In this document: positions 1,603-62,720 of the stretch, in pieces
How positions within the stretch are numbered: the stretch's first letter is position 1
Layout: the number at the start of each line of letters is the position of its first letter
The notes under the pieces: generated by a model
Database searches by the model: none
What the model saw: only the letters and a program-made list of their open reading frames with translations
What the model was told of the DNA's origin: nothing
Position numbers and translations under genes: made by a program
From: Clostridiales bacterium
GTDB lineage: Bacteria; Bacillota; Clostridia; UBA1381
DNA: 64,000 bases
Direction: 5' to 3'
Assembly (NCBI GenBank): GCA_029226975.1
Contig: JAQXZB010000037.1
Coordinates: 33,011 to 97,010 of the forward strand

Positions 1603-1803
1603 ATAACGTGAAAAATAAGCTGCGCATCTCACCGCTTTTTGCTCGGGGCGGTATACTCATACAGCACCGCTCGCTGCAAAGCGGCAATCTGCATTCACCG
1701 CCAAGAAGGGCGGACGCACGTAGTGCGGCTTTTGCGAAGCAAAAGTGATGACAGGCTTCTTTTCCACGTTATGATTTATGCCGCGAATGGCGGCGGAATG
1801 GAG
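1603..1803 (+). repeat. Structured leader repeat, copy A
   Basis: One copy of a dispersed structured repeat. Outer arms ATAACGTG (1603-1610) and CACGTTAT (1765-1772) are perfectly complementary. Inside are, in order, hairpins with stems ACCGC/GCGGT, CCGCT/AGCGG, CCGCC/GGCGG, CGCAC/GTGCG and CTTTTGC/GCAAAAG. A further GCCGC/GCGGC hairpin lies just outside, and the unit runs into the SD (GGAG) of spoVAE. It lies between spoVAD and spoVAE in the direction of transcription. A GTG behind a GGAG at 1608 opens a 46-codon frame ending at TGA 1746-1748, which may be chance. Confidence 0.85.
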
Positions 1804-1809
1804 AGTATT

Positions 1810-2166
1810 ATGGATTATGTAAAGGCTTTTGTTGTGGGCGGTCTGATATGTGTTGTGGGACAGATTTTAATAGATAAAACAAAGCTTACACCGGCAAGAA
1901 TTTTGGTTACGTTTGTGGTTTTGGGAGTGGCTTTGGAGCTTATCGGAGTTTACGGACGCTTGGTGGATTTTGCCGGAGCGGGCGCTACGGTTCCGCTTAC
2001 CGGCTTTGGTTATAATTTATGCAAGGGTGTAAGAGATGCGGTTGCCCAAAACGGGGCAATGGGGATTATGACCGGCGGACTTAAGGCGGCGGCGGGCGGC
2101 ATAAGCGCCGCACTGGTTTTCGGCTTCCTTGTGGCGGTTATATTTAAGTCAAAGGCGAAAAAGTAA
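1810..2166 (+). CDS. spoVAE: Stage V sporulation protein AE
   Basis: A 118-residue integral membrane protein with about three to four hydrophobic segments and the family signature FVVGGLICVVGQILIDKTKL near the N-terminus. It is the membrane partner of SpoVAD in the dipicolinate channel complex of the spore. The ORF track starts it at 1639, but the extra 57 residues are translated from the structured repeat (the same peptide precedes yggS), so I place the start at the ATG at 1810, after GGAG. With that start the length matches the family. It is separated from spoVAD by the repeat and followed by a terminator. Confidence 0.93.
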   Translation: MDYVKAFVVGGLICVVGQILIDKTKLTPARILVTFVVLGVALELIGVYGRLVDFAGAGATVPLTGFGYNLCKGVRDAVAQNGAMGIMTGGLKAAAGGISAALVFGFLVAVIFKSKAKK

Positions 2167-32179: not shown

Positions 32180-32384
32180 ATAATGCGAAAAATAAGCTGC
32201 GCATCTCACCGCTTTTTGCTCGGGGCGGTATACACATACAGCACCGCTCGCTGCAAAGCGGCAATATGCATTCACCGCCAAGAAGGGCGGACGCACGCAG
32301 TGCGGCTTTTGCGAAGCAAAAGTGATGACAGGCTTCTTTTCCGCATTATGATTTGTGCCGCCGCATGGCGGTTGAATGGAGGAG
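32180..32384 (+). repeat. Structured leader repeat, copy B
   Basis: Closest relative of copy A. Outer arms ATAATGCG (32180-32187) and CGCATTAT (32342-32349) are perfectly complementary, though the sequence differs from copy A. The same five internal hairpins follow, then a CCGCC/GGCGG hairpin and the GGAGG SD of yggS. An ATG at 32183 with GGAGG just upstream is in frame with yggS and the frame is open throughout, which is why the ORF track extends yggS into the repeat. Confidence 0.85.
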
Positions 32385-32389
32385 TTGTT

Positions 32390-33079
32390 ATGTCAATAGA
32401 AGAAAATCTTAATTCCGTAAAAGAGCGCATAGCCAAGGCGGCAGTGCGGGCAGGACGAAGCCCAAAGGATATTTCGCTCATTGCCGTTACCAAAACCCAT
32501 GGCGCGGATATGATTAACGAAGCGATAGACAAGGGCGTAAGCGACATAGGCGAGAACAAGCCCCAGGAGGTGCGCGACAAGTTTGAATATGTAAAAAGCG
32601 GCGTAAAATGGCATCTTATCGGGCATTTGCAGACAAATAAGGTAAAATATATAATAGACAAGGTTTGTCTTATACATTCGGTTGACAGCATACATCTTAT
32701 GGAGGAGATAGACCGTCAGGCAAGGAAGTACGGAAAAATCATGGATGTGCTTATACAGGTGAATATTTCCGGGGAGGAAAGCAAGTCGGGAATTGAGCCG
32801 GGAGAGCTTGATGCGCTTTTAAAAAAGGCGGGAGAGCTTGACAGCCTGCGGGTTAAGGGACTTATGACCATTGCTCCCATAGAGGGCGATGCGTCGGTGC
32901 ATTTTAAAAATATGAAAGCTTTGTTTGACGAATATAAGGAAAAATCCTATCCTCATGTGAGCATGGAGGAGCTGTCCATGGGCATGAGCGGGGATTTTGA
33001 AAAGGCGATTGAGTGCGGCGCGACAATGGTACGCGTAGGCTCGGCGATATTCGGAAAACGCGATTATACAAGGAGGTAA
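32390..33079 (+). CDS. yggS: PLP homeostasis protein (YggS/YlmE family)
   Basis: 229 residues from ATG 32390 (GGAGG, 6-base spacing). The PLP Lys is in LIAVTKTHGADMI (about residue 36); GENKPQEVRDKF, WHLIGHLQTNKV, VNISGEESKSG, GLMTIAP and SMGMSGDFEKAIECGATMVR are all present. A fold-type III PLP-binding protein with no known catalytic reaction, thought to buffer PLP. Begins the ylm-type cluster with sepF, ylmH and divIVA. The upstream ORF extension of 69 codons comes from the structured repeat and is not part of the family. Confidence 0.95.
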   Translation: MSIEENLNSVKERIAKAAVRAGRSPKDISLIAVTKTHGADMINEAIDKGVSDIGENKPQEVRDKFEYVKSGVKWHLIGHLQTNKVKYIIDKVCLIHSVDSIHLMEEIDRQARKYGKIMDVLIQVNISGEESKSGIEPGELDALLKKAGELDSLRVKGLMTIAPIEGDASVHFKNMKALFDEYKEKSYPHVSMEELSMGMSGDFEKAIECGATMVRVGSAIFGKRDYTRR

Positions 33080-41196: not shown

Positions 41197-41454
41197 TCAT
41201 TTCCATTGGTCAAGACACTTTTTTAGCAGTCTTGTAAGCTCTTCCTTTTCCTCCTCCGTAAGAAAGGACAGCGTTTCCTCCTTGGCGTTGCCGTGGCGCA
41301 GATGATGAGAGCATTTTAGCATAAGCTTTACGGTCTTGTCCTTTTTCTTTTTCTCCTCAACGCCGAAATATTTCATTCCGCGGGAGCAGTGAAGATTATC
41401 CGCACTGCAGTGTTTGCCGCAGCAGGGGCATACGTTTTCTTTTTTCTTTTTCAT
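41197..41454 (-). CDS. Small Cys-rich protein of unknown function
   Basis: 85 residues from ATG 41454 (SD AAAGGTGG; the track starts 12 bases earlier). The N-terminus is a compact zinc-binding-like cluster (CPCCGKHCSADNLHCSRG), followed by a Lys-rich stretch and a helical C-terminus (FLTEEEKEELTRLLKKCLDQW). LKCSHHLRHGN in the middle adds more possible metal ligands. I recall similar short proteins in Clostridia but cannot name a function. Its leader contains the tandem structured repeats C and C'. Confidence 0.7.
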   Translation of the reverse strand: MKKKKENVCPCCGKHCSADNLHCSRGMKYFGVEEKKKKDKTVKLMLKCSHHLRHGNAKEETLSFLTEEEKEELTRLLKKCLDQWK

Positions 41455-41480
41455 AAATATGACCACCTTTCACAAAACCC

Positions 41481-41653
41481 GTTTGGGAAAAGAGAAGCTT
41501 GTCATCACTTTTGCTCCGCAAAAGCCGCACTCCGTGCGTCCGCCCTTCTTGGCGGTGAGTGCAGATTGCTGTTATGAGGAGTGCAGTCGTACTTTGTGTA
41601 CTTCAAGCTCCGAATGACGGTAAGATGCGCCGCTTATCTTTTTCCAAACTTAT
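41481..41653 (-). repeat. Structured leader repeat, copy C
   Basis: Nearly full copy of the second subtype, read on the minus strand. Arms GTTTGG/CCAAAC close it. The CCGCC/GGCGG, CGCAC/GTGCG and CTTTTGC/GCAAAAG hairpins match copies A and B with other loop bases; the upstream half differs (nested GTAC/GTAC hairpin). It runs into the AAAGGTGG SD of the small Cys-rich gene. Confidence 0.85.
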
Positions 41654-41678
41654 AGTCCGAAATTCTTTCACCAATGCC

Positions 41679-41790
41679 GTTTGGGAAAAGAGAAGCAAGC
41701 AGATTGCTGTTATGAGGAGCGCAGTCGTACTTTGTGTACTTCAAGCTCCGAATGACGGTAAGATGCGCCGCTTATCTTTTTCCAAACTTA
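41679..41790 (-). repeat. Structured leader repeat, deletion derivative C'
   Basis: Tandem with copy C, 25 bases away. Identical to copy C at both ends, but the internal three-hairpin block (TTGTCATC...GTGAGTGC) is missing. It begins 11 bp after the stop of the amidase-domain gene. Confidence 0.85.
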
Positions 41791-41800
41791 TTCTCCCTTG

Positions 41801-58386: not shown

Positions 58387-59184
58387 TTACTTGTTCTTTA
58401 TCTGTATCATGTACTGTGTACCCCAATCGAAGCTTTCCTCCTCGATGCTTGCGTCCACTCCGCCGCGCTTCATTATGTCCACAGCCTTTGCAACGGTGTT
58501 CTTAAAAAACGAAAGATTGTCCGAGGACGCCTTCTTCTGCTCCCTTATCCGCTTTTTCTTAGGATGATTTATCTCGTCTATAAGCCTGTTTGTTTCCTCA
58601 ACACTTAAGGAATTTATGCATATTCTTTTTACAACCTCTATACGGTCGTTTTCGTCTTTGAGCCTTAAAAGGGCGGCGGCGTGGCGTTCGGAAATATCGT
58701 ATTCGCGTATCAAGCGCCTTATTTGGGGCGAGAGCCTAAGAAGCCTTAATTTATTTGAAATGCTCGCGCGGCTTTTGCCCACCTTTTCGGCTATTTTCTC
58801 CTGTGTAAAGCCCTGCTCCCTTATAAGCTTTTCATAGCTTTGGGCAACCTCGAAAAAGGTCAAATCCTCCCGCTGAAGATTTTCAAGCAGAGAAAGTATC
58901 GCGCATTTATCCTCGGTAGTTTCCACAACCACAGCCGGGATTTCATAAAGCCCGGCAAGCTGTGCCGCCCGAAAACGCCTTTCGCCGCAGATAAGCTCAT
59001 AACCCAAGCTTGTCTTTCTGACGGTTACGGGATTTATCATTCCGTATTCGAGTATGGAATTTTTAAGGCTCTCCAAAGATTTCTCGTCAAAATACATACG
59101 CGGCTGGCAGGGATTTGGGAGAAGCTTTGAAAGAGGTATATTTATAAGATTGTTTTGCTTTGTTTTAAACATATTTATGACCAT
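58387..59184 (-). CDS. ParB/Noc-type chromosome segregation or nucleoid occlusion protein
   Basis: 265 residues. ParB N-terminal domain LSKLLPNPCQPRMYFDEKSL, CTP-binding GERRFRAAQ, ENLQREDLTFFEVAQSYEKL and the HTH GFTQEKIAEKVGKSRASISN. A C-terminal dimer domain follows. ParB/Noc proteins bind parS or NBS sites as CTP-dependent clamps. I cannot tell Noc from ParB; no parA is adjacent. I use ATG 59184 because GGAG lies just ahead, but ATG 59172 is also possible. The structured repeat D ends 19 bp before the start. Confidence 0.9.
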   Translation of the reverse strand: MVINMFKTKQNNLINIPLSKLLPNPCQPRMYFDEKSLESLKNSILEYGMINPVTVRKTSLGYELICGERRFRAAQLAGLYEIPAVVVETTEDKCAILSLLENLQREDLTFFEVAQSYEKLIREQGFTQEKIAEKVGKSRASISNKLRLLRLSPQIRRLIREYDISERHAAALLRLKDENDRIEVVKRICINSLSVEETNRLIDEINHPKKKRIREQKKASSDNLSFFKNTVAKAVDIMKRGGVDASIEEESFDWGTQYMIQIKNK

Positions 59185-59966: not shown

Positions 59967-60078
59967 TGCCGTTTCAACTGAACACCTCTACCGTCGAAGT
60001 TGTACACCCATTCCGCTCAAGTTGAACAGCAGTTCCGCTGAAGTTGTACACCCATCCCGCGATAGCTGTACATTGACA

Positions 60079-60278
60079 CATATCAAAAATTAATATATAA
60101 TATTCTTATCCGCAGCGGAGGATAGTGCAACGCTGAGGAGCGACATGAGCGCCGTTTGCGGGGATATACGGAAAGAGTGGATCTTTGGCTATTCACTCTT
60201 TTTCTGTGCCACTCTTTCCGGTATCCCTCAATGCGTTAAACCTCGGGTTCGGGCAGAGCCCGATGAGCCGAAGGCTCC
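60079..60278. other. Non-coding region of IS21 downstream of istB with nested hairpins
   Basis: CGGAAAGAGTGG (60169-60180) can pair with CCACTCTTTCCG (60209-60220) or with the nearer CACTCTTTTT (60194-60203), giving two exclusive hairpins. The nearer one with its T-run is terminator-like on the plus strand, which would shield the IS from outside transcription. No gene. Confidence 0.5.
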
Positions 60279-61028
60279 TTATTCTTCTGTTACGCCTTTA
60301 CGCTTGCGCATTGATTCCTTGCACTCAATGATTACTGAATATGCGTCATGTACTATTCGATCACATATGGCATCTGCAAGAATGGGTTCTCCTATCTTAT
60401 TCCTCCATCCCGGTACATCAAACTGTGAGCAGAAGATTGTTGATGCCGTTTTGTATCTCGTCTCCGCAATTTCAAGCAGATCTCGCGCTTCAGTTTCTTT
60501 GAGCGGATACAGCAGCCATTCATCCAATATGAGCAATGACGGCTTCTTGTATTGCTGAATTACTTTTCTGTAAGTTCCATTAACTCTGGCTATTGCAAGT
60601 TCAGTCAAGAGTTCAGGCAAACGTATATATTTCACAGTGAAAAAATTGCGTACTGCTGCCATTCCCAATGCACACGCAATATATGTTTTGCCGCTGCCGG
60701 TAGCACCTAACAGAAGTATATTATGATGCCCTGTTATGTAATTGCATGTCGCAAATCTCGCCATTTGAGCTTTGTCAAGAGTTCTGTCAGGGTGATATTC
60801 AATATCCTCAATACAGGCTCCGGGCTCTGCAAATGATGCTTTTTTGATAAGGCGTTTAAGATGATTGTTCTTCCTTGTTGTCCACTCTTGATCAACAAGA
60901 AGTCCAAAACGCTCTTCGAATGACAGTGATGCCATTTCCGGAGTAAGCAGTTGTTCCTGAAATGCTCGCGCCATTGTGCTGAGCCTCATATCCTGTAATT
61001 TGCTGACTGTTACTTCTTTGAGCATCAC
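60279..61028 (-). CDS. istB: IS21-family ATPase helper protein
   Basis: 249 residues, AAA+ DnaC-like. Walker A in LLLGATGSGKTYIACALG, Walker B in PSLLILDEWLLYPL, sensor-like IFCSQFDVPGW. IstB assembles on target DNA with ATP and recruits the IstA transposase. Translationally coupled to istA by a 4-bp overlap. Confidence 0.96.
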   Translation of the reverse strand: MMLKEVTVSKLQDMRLSTMARAFQEQLLTPEMASLSFEERFGLLVDQEWTTRKNNHLKRLIKKASFAEPGACIEDIEYHPDRTLDKAQMARFATCNYITGHHNILLLGATGSGKTYIACALGMAAVRNFFTVKYIRLPELLTELAIARVNGTYRKVIQQYKKPSLLILDEWLLYPLKETEARDLLEIAETRYKTASTIFCSQFDVPGWRNKIGEPILADAICDRIVHDAYSVIIECKESMRKRKGVTEE

Positions 61029-62566
61029 TTGTCCCTCCCTTCATAATATCCCGCTCCACGAGTGAAACCGTATTGTGATGATGACACTGTCTTTTTCTCT
61101 TCAATGTCTATTTCTGACTTGTCCTGTCCTGATGCAAGGATCGCTTGGATGTTTTTAAGGGAAGGACGCGCAGCAAATGTGAGAGCTTTTGTACAGGCAT
61201 TTTCTAAACGTTCCGGAGTGTACTTGTCTGCAAGCTTCAGAAGCCCCATACAGCTTTTGTAGCCTTGTTGCTCTACCTTGTAGCCGCTGAGAATTGCTGC
61301 TACAACTATGTTAGTGTTTTTCCCAATCTTTATCGCCCATTTCTTGAATCGTTCTCCATTCCACTGCACATATTGCTGATGCTTTTCCGGCATATGAGCC
61401 TCTATGGTACTGTATTGATTTGCACGGCCATACAATCGTGCATGTGAGCATATGCGGTTTCCGCCATAGAAAACTTCAATCACACCTTTTGTTATGCGGA
61501 CATCAACCTTATGTTTTATGTATTCATAGGGAACAGAGTAATTCATTTTATCTACTGATATGTGATAATTAGGCCCAACAGTTGCGATCTTCCAAGTTGA
61601 AAGCTCGTAATGCCTTTTCGGAAGCGACGTAAGAAACAGCTTTTCCTCTTCAAATTCGCTTGAACGGCTTCCGTCTCTTTTTTGAAACGGTTTATGGTTA
61701 AATTCATAAAGCCGTTCTGCAATAGCATCGTTTAACTCCCTAAATGAAAGGAATCTGCGATTGCGTAATGATGCAATTATGAAGGTGGAGATGACACCGA
61801 CTGTTCCTTCTACCATTGCTTTATCCTTCGGAGACTTTACACGGCAAGGAATCACGGCTGTGTTGTAATGCTCAGCCATTTCATTGTAACTCTTGTTTAA
61901 GCGTACCTCATTTCGACTATGCTTTTCAACTCCTGTTTTGAGATTATCACATTGAAGAATTTTAGCCACTCCGCCAAAGAAACTAAAAGCGTTGACATGA
62001 GCAGAAATCCAGCATTCTTCATTCATAGATGGGAACGCTTCTACATAGGTATAGCCGCTGTACGGCAAGGCAGCAACAAAGACATACGCTTTAATGATTT
62101 CACCTGTGTCCGTATCAACCACAGATGCGGTATCGCCTGCCCAATCCACCTGAAGGATCTCACCGGGCTTGTGGTTGAGATGCATAGTTGCATTTTTCTT
62201 TGCAAGATAATCGTTGTAGTACTTGTTAAACTGTGTAGACTGATATGCGAGTTCTCCATTCATTCGGCATACATCGCAGTATTCAAGCCATAACATATTC
62301 AAGGTTACACCGCTTTTTAGCATCTCCTTATGCACATAGTCATAGTCCGGCATTTTGTATTCCGGCTTTGCTGCTTTTGCCGGATAGAGAAGCTGCGCCA
62401 GCTCCTTGTCCGACATTGCTTCAGGCAATGGATATCGAATGCACTTCACCTCCGCCTGATTCAGAGCCTGTATTACAGTTGTTCTGGAACAACCGCAAGC
62501 CTCGGCTATCTGAGTTTTGTTGAGCCCAAGACTGTCAAGTCTGAGGATCTCACGATAATTGGTCAT
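61025..62566 (-). CDS. istA: IS21-family transposase
   Basis: 513 residues from ATG 62566 (AAAGGAGG; the track starts 27 bases upstream). N-terminal HTH (LGLNKTQIAEACGCSRTTVI), DDE catalytic residues in ILQVDWAGD, ILQCDNLKTG and DKAMVEGTVGVI. A C-terminal beta-barrel follows. Intact length, so the element could still move. Confidence 0.96.
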   Translation of the reverse strand: MTNYREILRLDSLGLNKTQIAEACGCSRTTVIQALNQAEVKCIRYPLPEAMSDKELAQLLYPAKAAKPEYKMPDYDYVHKEMLKSGVTLNMLWLEYCDVCRMNGELAYQSTQFNKYYNDYLAKKNATMHLNHKPGEILQVDWAGDTASVVDTDTGEIIKAYVFVAALPYSGYTYVEAFPSMNEECWISAHVNAFSFFGGVAKILQCDNLKTGVEKHSRNEVRLNKSYNEMAEHYNTAVIPCRVKSPKDKAMVEGTVGVISTFIIASLRNRRFLSFRELNDAIAERLYEFNHKPFQKRDGSRSSEFEEEKLFLTSLPKRHYELSTWKIATVGPNYHISVDKMNYSVPYEYIKHKVDVRITKGVIEVFYGGNRICSHARLYGRANQYSTIEAHMPEKHQQYVQWNGERFKKWAIKIGKNTNIVVAAILSGYKVEQQGYKSCMGLLKLADKYTPERLENACTKALTFAARPSLKNIQAILASGQDKSEIDIEEKKTVSSSQYGFTRGAGYYEGRDK

Positions 62567-62627
62567 ATTATCGACCTCCTTTATTGTATTCACGCATATG
62601 CGTGTAACAACATTTTATCGCAAAATC

Positions 62628-62720
62628 TTCAACTGTTCAACTACAGTGGAAAGGGTGTACAACTTCGGCGGTGATGCTGTACAACTTCAGCGGTTGCGTT
62701 GTTCAATCTCGCGCGGAACA
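62628..62720. repeat. Right-end repeat array of the IS21 element
   Basis: Four units related to the left-end 22-bp repeats but inverted (GTACAACTTCGGCGG, GTACAACTTCAGCGG and two divergent ones). Confidence 0.85.

What the first reader, a model, noticed from the sequence alone, without database searches (positions are those of the whole stretch)
1603..1772. Outer stem of the repeat covaries between copies
Copy A has ATAACGTG/CACGTTAT, copy B has ATAATGCG/CGCATTAT, copies C and D have GTTTGG/CCAAAC. Arms differ between copies but are perfectly complementary within each copy. Loop bases of the inner hairpins also vary (GTA, GCA, GGA; GAA, GGA) while stems are kept. This is the signature of selection on structure. 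An alternative is a copying process that regenerates one arm from the other at each insertion.
Basis: partly seen in the sequence, partly recalled or inferred. Interest (0 to 1): 0.75.

Follow-up and report, generated by a model that had tools for sequence, protein, structure and literature searches.

The report
Mobile hairpin at gene start sites
The repeat is one copy of a previously uncatalogued family of small hairpin-forming DNA elements, scattered by the dozen through genomes of gut Clostridia just before genes' start codons; their two arms change together because a folded structure is kept by selection, and the fold favoured is that of the DNA strand opposite the messenger RNA.

Summary
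In detail: the four window copies have different but complementary outer arms. It generalises. The genome has about 26 copies, and most genomes of its family carry some. In 49 diverse copies, 29 of 37 stem pairs show two-sided changes (covariation score 0.39; at most 0.12 when slid), and 27 distinct arm combinations occur. One-sided intermediates and conserved mismatches show stepwise compensation, not regeneration of one arm from the other. So 'selection on structure' is supported, with two corrections. (1) The favoured fold is on the strand complementary to the mRNA: it is the more stable strand in 49/49 copies and in all 12 copies tested outside the A3 set. This argues against an mRNA-leader function. 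(2) It is an interspersed element, sense-oriented, sitting between the stop codon or Shine-Dalgarno (SD) site of one gene and the start codon of the next, usually about 40 nt before the start, with its own SD; orthologous junctions in relatives are empty. It matches no Rfam family. No Y1 transposase, reverse transcriptase, IS110 transposase or integron integrase tracks its copy number. Best explanation: a non-autonomous element mobilised through a folded template-strand hairpin, aimed at ribosome-binding sites. Structure, strand bias and placement are shown; the mobilising enzyme is inferred, not found.

The parts
1603..1610 (+). Copy A, left outer arm ATAACGTG, directly after the spoVAD stop codon (TAG) and a GGAG
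   Evidence: sequence; spoVAD identified by Pfam PF07451
1611..1631 (+). Copy A, inner left stem AAAAATAAGC plus conserved motif (C)TGCGCATCTCA
   Evidence: near-invariant columns of A1 and A3
1632..1685 (+). Copy A, inner long hairpin (variable, covarying stem; GTAY-loop-RTAC tip)
1686..1692 (+). Copy A, conserved 3' side of the internal loop and stem (AATCTGC)
1693..1754 (+). Copy A, about 62-nt optional internal module with three hairpins (loops that vary between copies); absent from short copies
   Evidence: comparison of long and short copies
1755..1764 (+). Copy A, inner right stem GCTTCTTTTC, pairs with GAAAAATAAGC
1765..1772 (+). Copy A, right outer arm CACGTTAT
   Evidence: sequence
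1773..1804 (+). Copy A, 3' tail: small GC-rich hairpin (GCCGCGAATGGCGGC) followed by a Shine-Dalgarno sequence (GGAATGGAG)
   Evidence: shared by type-1 copies in several genomes
1810..2166 (+). spoVAE-like gene downstream of copy A (SpoVAC_SpoVAEB)
   Evidence: Pfam PF03862, E 1.3e-36
32180..32389 (+). Copy B (long form); arms 32180-32187 / 32342-32349; tail and SD to 32389; YggS-like gene (PF01168) starts at 32390
41455..41649 (-). Copy C (type 2, GTTTGG/CCAAAC, long form) with tail; a small 85-aa ORF starts at 41454
41674..41793 (-). Copy C2 (short form, same arms) in tandem just upstream of copy C
   Evidence: R1 match, 110 bits
59173..59372 (-). Copy D (type 2, long form) with tail; ParB-like gene (PF17762, PF02195) starts at 59172, with an in-frame earlier ATG supplied by the tail at 59184

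Best explanation
The repeat is a non-autonomous, interspersed hairpin element (about 120 nt short form, about 190 nt long form) that spreads within genomes and comes to lie at cistron junctions: just after the upstream gene's stop codon or SD and usually about 40 nt before the downstream start codon. It carries its own SD, and its left arm in some copies supplies the upstream gene's stop codon, so both neighbours stay translatable. The outer arms belong to the element and diverge stepwise with compensatory change, because a long, bulged hairpin on the strand complementary to the mRNA must be kept. The most likely reason is that this strand, folded as single-stranded DNA, is what the mobilising enzyme recognises, as attC sites and REP hairpins are recognised by their recombinases. 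Shown: structure, covariation, strand bias, dispersal, sense-only placement, empty sites. Inferred: that the folded molecule is DNA rather than antisense RNA, that it is a transposition substrate, and the unknown enzyme acting in trans.
For: Covariation. Strand bias: A.C 106 against G.T 44 on the sense strand; antisense strand more stable in 49/49 copies, 14/14 clusters and 12/12 further copies; in 11 of those, 48 G.U in the best antisense folds against 24 in the sense folds, p=0.006; DNA parameters agree for two copies. Dispersal: about 26 copies in the own genome, near-identical copies upstream of unrelated genes, 63 of 95 genomes of the order. Placement: 66 of 72 copies have a same-strand start codon with SD within 90 nt of the right arm against 16% of random positions in the same loci, most distances 39-42 nt; 45 of 72 have an upstream same-strand stop codon close to the left arm. 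Orthologous junctions without the element: yggS, ftsY, murB, the L051 gene. Left and right flanks share SD plus spacer strings in the own genome (permutation p=0.0014). Sharp left boundary at TAACGTG after an SD-like stretch.
Against: No mobilising enzyme found: Y1 transposase, reverse transcriptase, IS110 transposase and integron integrase do not track copy number. No element with an internal gene was seen. Target duplication is partial in the own genome and absent in G008. None of the viral pattern-match loci held a copy by the model, and there was no match in plasmids or phages. Transposition was not observed. The same strand bias could in principle come from antisense RNA, or from selection on the mRNA to fold less.
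Confidence: 0.5

Rival explanations
1. A cis-acting mRNA leader or intercistronic RNA (sense strand) that regulates the downstream gene or processes the operon mRNA; copies multiplied because the regulation is useful.
For: Sense-oriented and just before start codons, with an SD in its tail; conserved internal loops.
Against: The sense strand is the worse-folding strand in every copy tested and tolerates A.C more than G.T; downstream genes are unrelated (spoVAE, YggS-like, ParB-like in the window; many others by sequence); orthologous genes lack it.
Confidence: 0.12
2. An antisense RNA gene or element RNA: the antisense strand is transcribed, and the folded RNA, not DNA, is the functional molecule (for example bound by a protein, or acting in trans).
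For: G.U-type tolerance and better folding of the antisense strand; conserved tandem GA internal loop and tip motif on that strand.
Against: In copy A the promoter scan found no antisense promoter inside the element; tails differ between types, so no shared antisense promoter is evident; no Rfam match.
Confidence: 0.15
3. Arms are regenerated by template switching (quasi-palindrome correction) during replication, which alone keeps them complementary; there is no functional selection.
For: Template switching is known to create and maintain stems with multi-base compensatory changes (PMC8794818); long palindromes are prone to it.
Against: Conserved mismatches and internal loops survive across families, whereas copying makes perfect arms; one-sided changes are common, with TAACGTG paired to five right arms; strand-specific wobble bias is not expected.
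Confidence: 0.1
4. A conventional MITE of a DDE insertion sequence: outer arms are terminal inverted repeats, moved by a transposase from an IS elsewhere, with short target duplications.
For: Short, non-autonomous, multi-copy; flank duplication signal in the own genome; inverted repeats.
Against: The right arm is not terminal (a tail of about 35 nt lies outside it) and the two arm types have unrelated arm sequences around one core; no duplication in G008; insertion is sense-only at start codons; no IS with these ends was seen.
Confidence: 0.13

Closest known systems
Integron attC sites
   Same: Long imperfect hairpin recognised as a folded bottom strand, arms variable in sequence but complementary, located after a stop codon and before the next gene (general knowledge; bottom-strand recombination stated in the abstract of PMC2117344).
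   Different: No conserved AAC/GTT core (arms such as GTTTGG/CCAAAC, TAAGACG/CGTCTTA), a conserved internal core instead, dispersed copies at chromosomal genes rather than a cassette array, and no integron integrase above cut-off in 70 genomes.
REP/REPIN elements with RAYT (Y1) transposases
   Same: Short, abundant, intergenic, palindromic, non-autonomous, with copy numbers tied to a cognate transposase gene (PMC3686654); thought to act as single-stranded hairpins (own knowledge).
   Different: Much longer bulged hairpin, covarying arms, sense-only at start codons, own SD; Y1 genes absent from several genomes rich in copies.
MITEs and small interspersed repeats (BOX, RUP, Correia, ERIC)
   Same: Non-autonomous, multi-copy, intergenic, able to fold (own knowledge).
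   Different: Placement at a narrow distance before start codons, strand-specific structure, arms not terminal on the right side.
Rickettsia palindromic elements
   Same: Palindromic repeats that tolerate being at or in genes and may be read by ribosomes (own knowledge, not tested).
   Different: These sit between genes; reading frames through the element are not conserved among copies.
Rfam structured RNA families
   Same: Covarying secondary structure.
   Different: No match to any of 4227 families, even at relaxed threshold for seven loci.

Membership tests
Integron attC site | conserved AAC/GTT triplets in the outer (R) boxes | tested here: not met
   type-2 and several other arms lack them
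Integron attC site | integron integrase (TIGR02249) in the genome | tested here: not met
   0 of 70 genomes above cut-off
Integron attC site | structure carried by one (bottom) strand | tested here: met
REP/RAYT elements | cognate Y1 transposase gene where copies are abundant | tested here: not met
   G001, G012, G013, G066, G068 and G080 have many copies and no Y1 match
IS110-type element with bridge RNA | IS110 transposase (PF02371) present where copies are abundant | tested here: not met
   no match in G000, G001, G012, G029, G066, G067
Group II intron or retron-related element | reverse transcriptase present where copies are abundant | tested here: not met
   no RVT_1 in G012, G029, G066, G067, G068, G080
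MITE of a DDE transposon | terminal inverted repeats at both ends | tested here: not met
   tail of about 35 nt lies outside the right arm
MITE of a DDE transposon | fixed-length target site duplication | tested here: inconclusive
   own genome p=0.0014 with variable length, G008 p=0.26
Known structured RNA (Rfam) | match at gathering score | tested here: not met
   only a tRNA in the window
Template-strand hairpin used in transposition | single-strand intermediate and cognate enzyme | not testable with these tools
   needs biochemistry

The most novel reading that the evidence does not exclude
A new class of mobile element that moves as a folded single strand and uses the ribosome-binding site and start codon as its integration site, carrying stop codons at one end and a Shine-Dalgarno sequence at the other so that operons stay functional.
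Probability: 0.25. Interest if true: 0.85.

Novelty: new variant of a known kind. Interest (0 to 1): 0.6.

Why it matters
Covariation is usually read as proof of a functional RNA. Here it is strong, yet the strand under selection is the opposite of the mRNA, so automated RNA-finding pipelines could file these elements as mRNA leaders. If the mobility reading holds, it is a family that places itself at start codons with little damage, changing the leaders of many housekeeping genes at once. Because copies are numerous and orthologous empty sites exist, it is a natural system for separating selection on structure from template-switch copying.

Tried and rejected
Rfam, gathering and relaxed thresholds: nothing. 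Y1 transposase, integron integrase, reverse transcriptase and IS110 as mobilisers: presence does not follow copy number. Viral, plasmid and phage occurrence: none confirmed; the 68 viral hits to the loose DNA pattern failed the covariance model. Encoded peptide: the frame after the element's GTG/ATG/TTG is open in some copies (A, B, G008) but differs or stops early in others; rejected. Host-derived left arm: in L379-L381 and the relA copies the left arm overlaps the end of the upstream CDS, which first suggested an inverted copy of host sequence, but comparison with copies lying beyond the stop codon (L013, L024, L026) suggests the arm, with its stop codons, is element sequence for most; unresolved for relA. 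A loose pattern scan for orthologous copies was too permissive; redone with model hits it gave one pair (L402/L413) with the same pairing outer-arm bases and no compensatory change there. Literature: seven searches gave no description of the element; subscription journals are not held.

Full report
OBSERVATION. Copy A: ATAACGTG 1603-1610, CACGTTAT 1765-1772; copy B: ATAATGCG 32180-32187, CGCATTAT 32342-32349; copies C and D on the minus strand: GTTTGG/CCAAAC. A fifth, short copy lies in tandem with C at 41674-41793. A and B are 96% identical over 182 nt yet differ at two arm positions with matching changes in the other arm. The hairpins with variable loops are part of a 62-nt module present in long copies and missing in short ones.

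THE FAMILY. The own genome (2.8 Mb, 123 contigs) has about 26 copies. A covariance model from 18 short copies (R1) matches 63 of 95 genomes of the order, nearly all in the same family, up to at least 38 per genome. A second model (R2), built on the antisense strand from 49 copies, matches 17 of 291 genomes of the class; outside the family the element is sporadic. Named relatives are gut Clostridia MAGs, including Oscillospiraceae. Rfam has no such family.

STRUCTURE. Alignment A3 (49 diverse short copies) supports 37 pairs: outer stem, inner stem, a 3-bp stem, an internal loop, then a long imperfect hairpin with a GTAY-loop-RTAC tip. 88.7% of cells pair; 29 pairs have two-sided changes; the covariation score is 0.39 against 0.056-0.12 when partners are slid, a control that keeps relatedness; no shuffle of 500 reaches any measure. 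There are 27 distinct arm combinations in the outer 7 bp: own arms give 6.0 canonical pairs, arms exchanged between copies 4.4. Between species, the orthologous relA-rlmB copies have left arms AATTTGACAAAATAAGC and AATTTGAAGAAATAAGC and right arms GCTTCTTTTGCCAAATT and GCTTCTTTCTTCAAATT: two adjacent pairs differ, both compensated.

WHICH STRAND. This is the main correction. On the mRNA-sense strand, A.C mismatches at paired positions (106) outnumber G.T (44). A.C on one strand is G.T on the other. The antisense strand folds better in all 49 copies, mean -48.0 against -36.2 kcal/mol, in each of 14 clusters at 75% identity, and in 12 copies outside the A3 set, the most diverged being -47.1 against -17.9. 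In 11 of those, best folds hold 48 G.U on the antisense and 24 on the sense strand, p=0.006. Positions 34/93 and 35/92 of A3, mostly not paired on the sense strand, are G.U or Watson-Crick on the antisense strand in nearly all copies. DNA energy parameters give the same direction for two copies. Copies are related, so these counts are not independent events, but the direction never reverses. An mRNA function should give the opposite bias.

COPYING OR SELECTION. Template switching can make and repair stems (PMC8794818). Against it as the sole cause: the left arm TAACGTG occurs with five right arms, with G.T and A.C intermediates; mismatches such as the A.C next to the outer stem, the A.G in the tip and the GA/GA loop are conserved, whereas copying would make them perfect; and copying predicts no strand bias. 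It may still supply some double changes.

PLACEMENT. All own-genome copies examined lie sense to the downstream gene, usually within a few nucleotides of the upstream stop codon. Of 72 copies from several genomes, 66 have a same-strand start codon with SD within 90 nt of the right arm, most at 39-42 nt, against 16% for random positions in the same loci; four of the six others also precede a start codon, with a longer SD spacing. In G008 the left boundary is sharp at TAACGTG, preceded by an SD-like stretch, and in most copies the tail reads GGAGGATTA two nucleotides before the start codon. In type-2 copies such as C, D, L056 and L058 the tail supplies its own in-frame start codon a few codons before the host ATG. 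Orthologous yggS, ftsY, murB, fucose-isomerase-like and L051-gene junctions in relatives have no element and neither arm; at spoVAE and DHFR the relative G001 has remnants of such elements. Own-genome left and right flanks share SD-spacer strings more than permuted pairs (p=0.0014), G008 flanks do not (p=0.26).

MECHANISM. Near-identical copies before unrelated genes plus empty orthologous sites mean dispersal. The antisense-strand fold and its independence from what the genes encode make a mobilisation signal the simplest role, in the manner of attC or REP hairpins. No tested enzyme family follows copy number, so the enzyme is unknown. Antisense RNA remains the chief rival for the strand bias.

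LIMITS. The genomes examined are mostly fragmented draft assemblies or MAGs, some contigs end in copies, no transcript data are available, and one search was too permissive to use. Names of genes other than those are from reading the sequences, not from a library search.

Noticed in passing
window 59979-62711: An IS21-type insertion sequence: IstB-like ORF 60279-61028 and IstA-like ORF 61025-62593, both minus, bounded by multiple about 22-nt inverted repeats (CTGAAGTTGTACA-type). It lies just beyond copy D; named from sequence, not searched against a library.
   Followed up: partly
window 1748-1775: A sigma-70-like promoter match (ATGACA-16-TATGAT, 10 of 12) on the gene strand across the right arm and tail of copy A; 2 sites found in the region against 0.6 expected. 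The long form might supply a promoter to the downstream gene.
   Followed up: no
window 1693-1754 and equivalents in copies B, C, D: The 62-nt three-hairpin module is shared by type-1 and type-2 copies whose arms and tails differ, so it seems to have moved between element types.
   Followed up: no
L374 6897-7226 and L375 6675-7008: Tandem arrays of 3-4 hairpin units at about 106-nt spacing between relA and rlmB-like genes in two species; the units of an array share nearly the same right arm, only the first has the matching left arm.
   Followed up: partly
L161, L163, L167 (G013) and L134 (G008): Mini copies lacking the inner hairpin (for example AAGTTTGGAAAAAGATAAGCACCGCTTCTCTTTTCCCAAACG) stand in tandem behind full copies.
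   Followed up: no
L402 and L413: The gene before an AtpD-like start (MSNIGKIVRIIGPVIDI) reads into the element and uses the TAA of AAAAATAAGC as stop, so the element sets its last residues.
   Followed up: no
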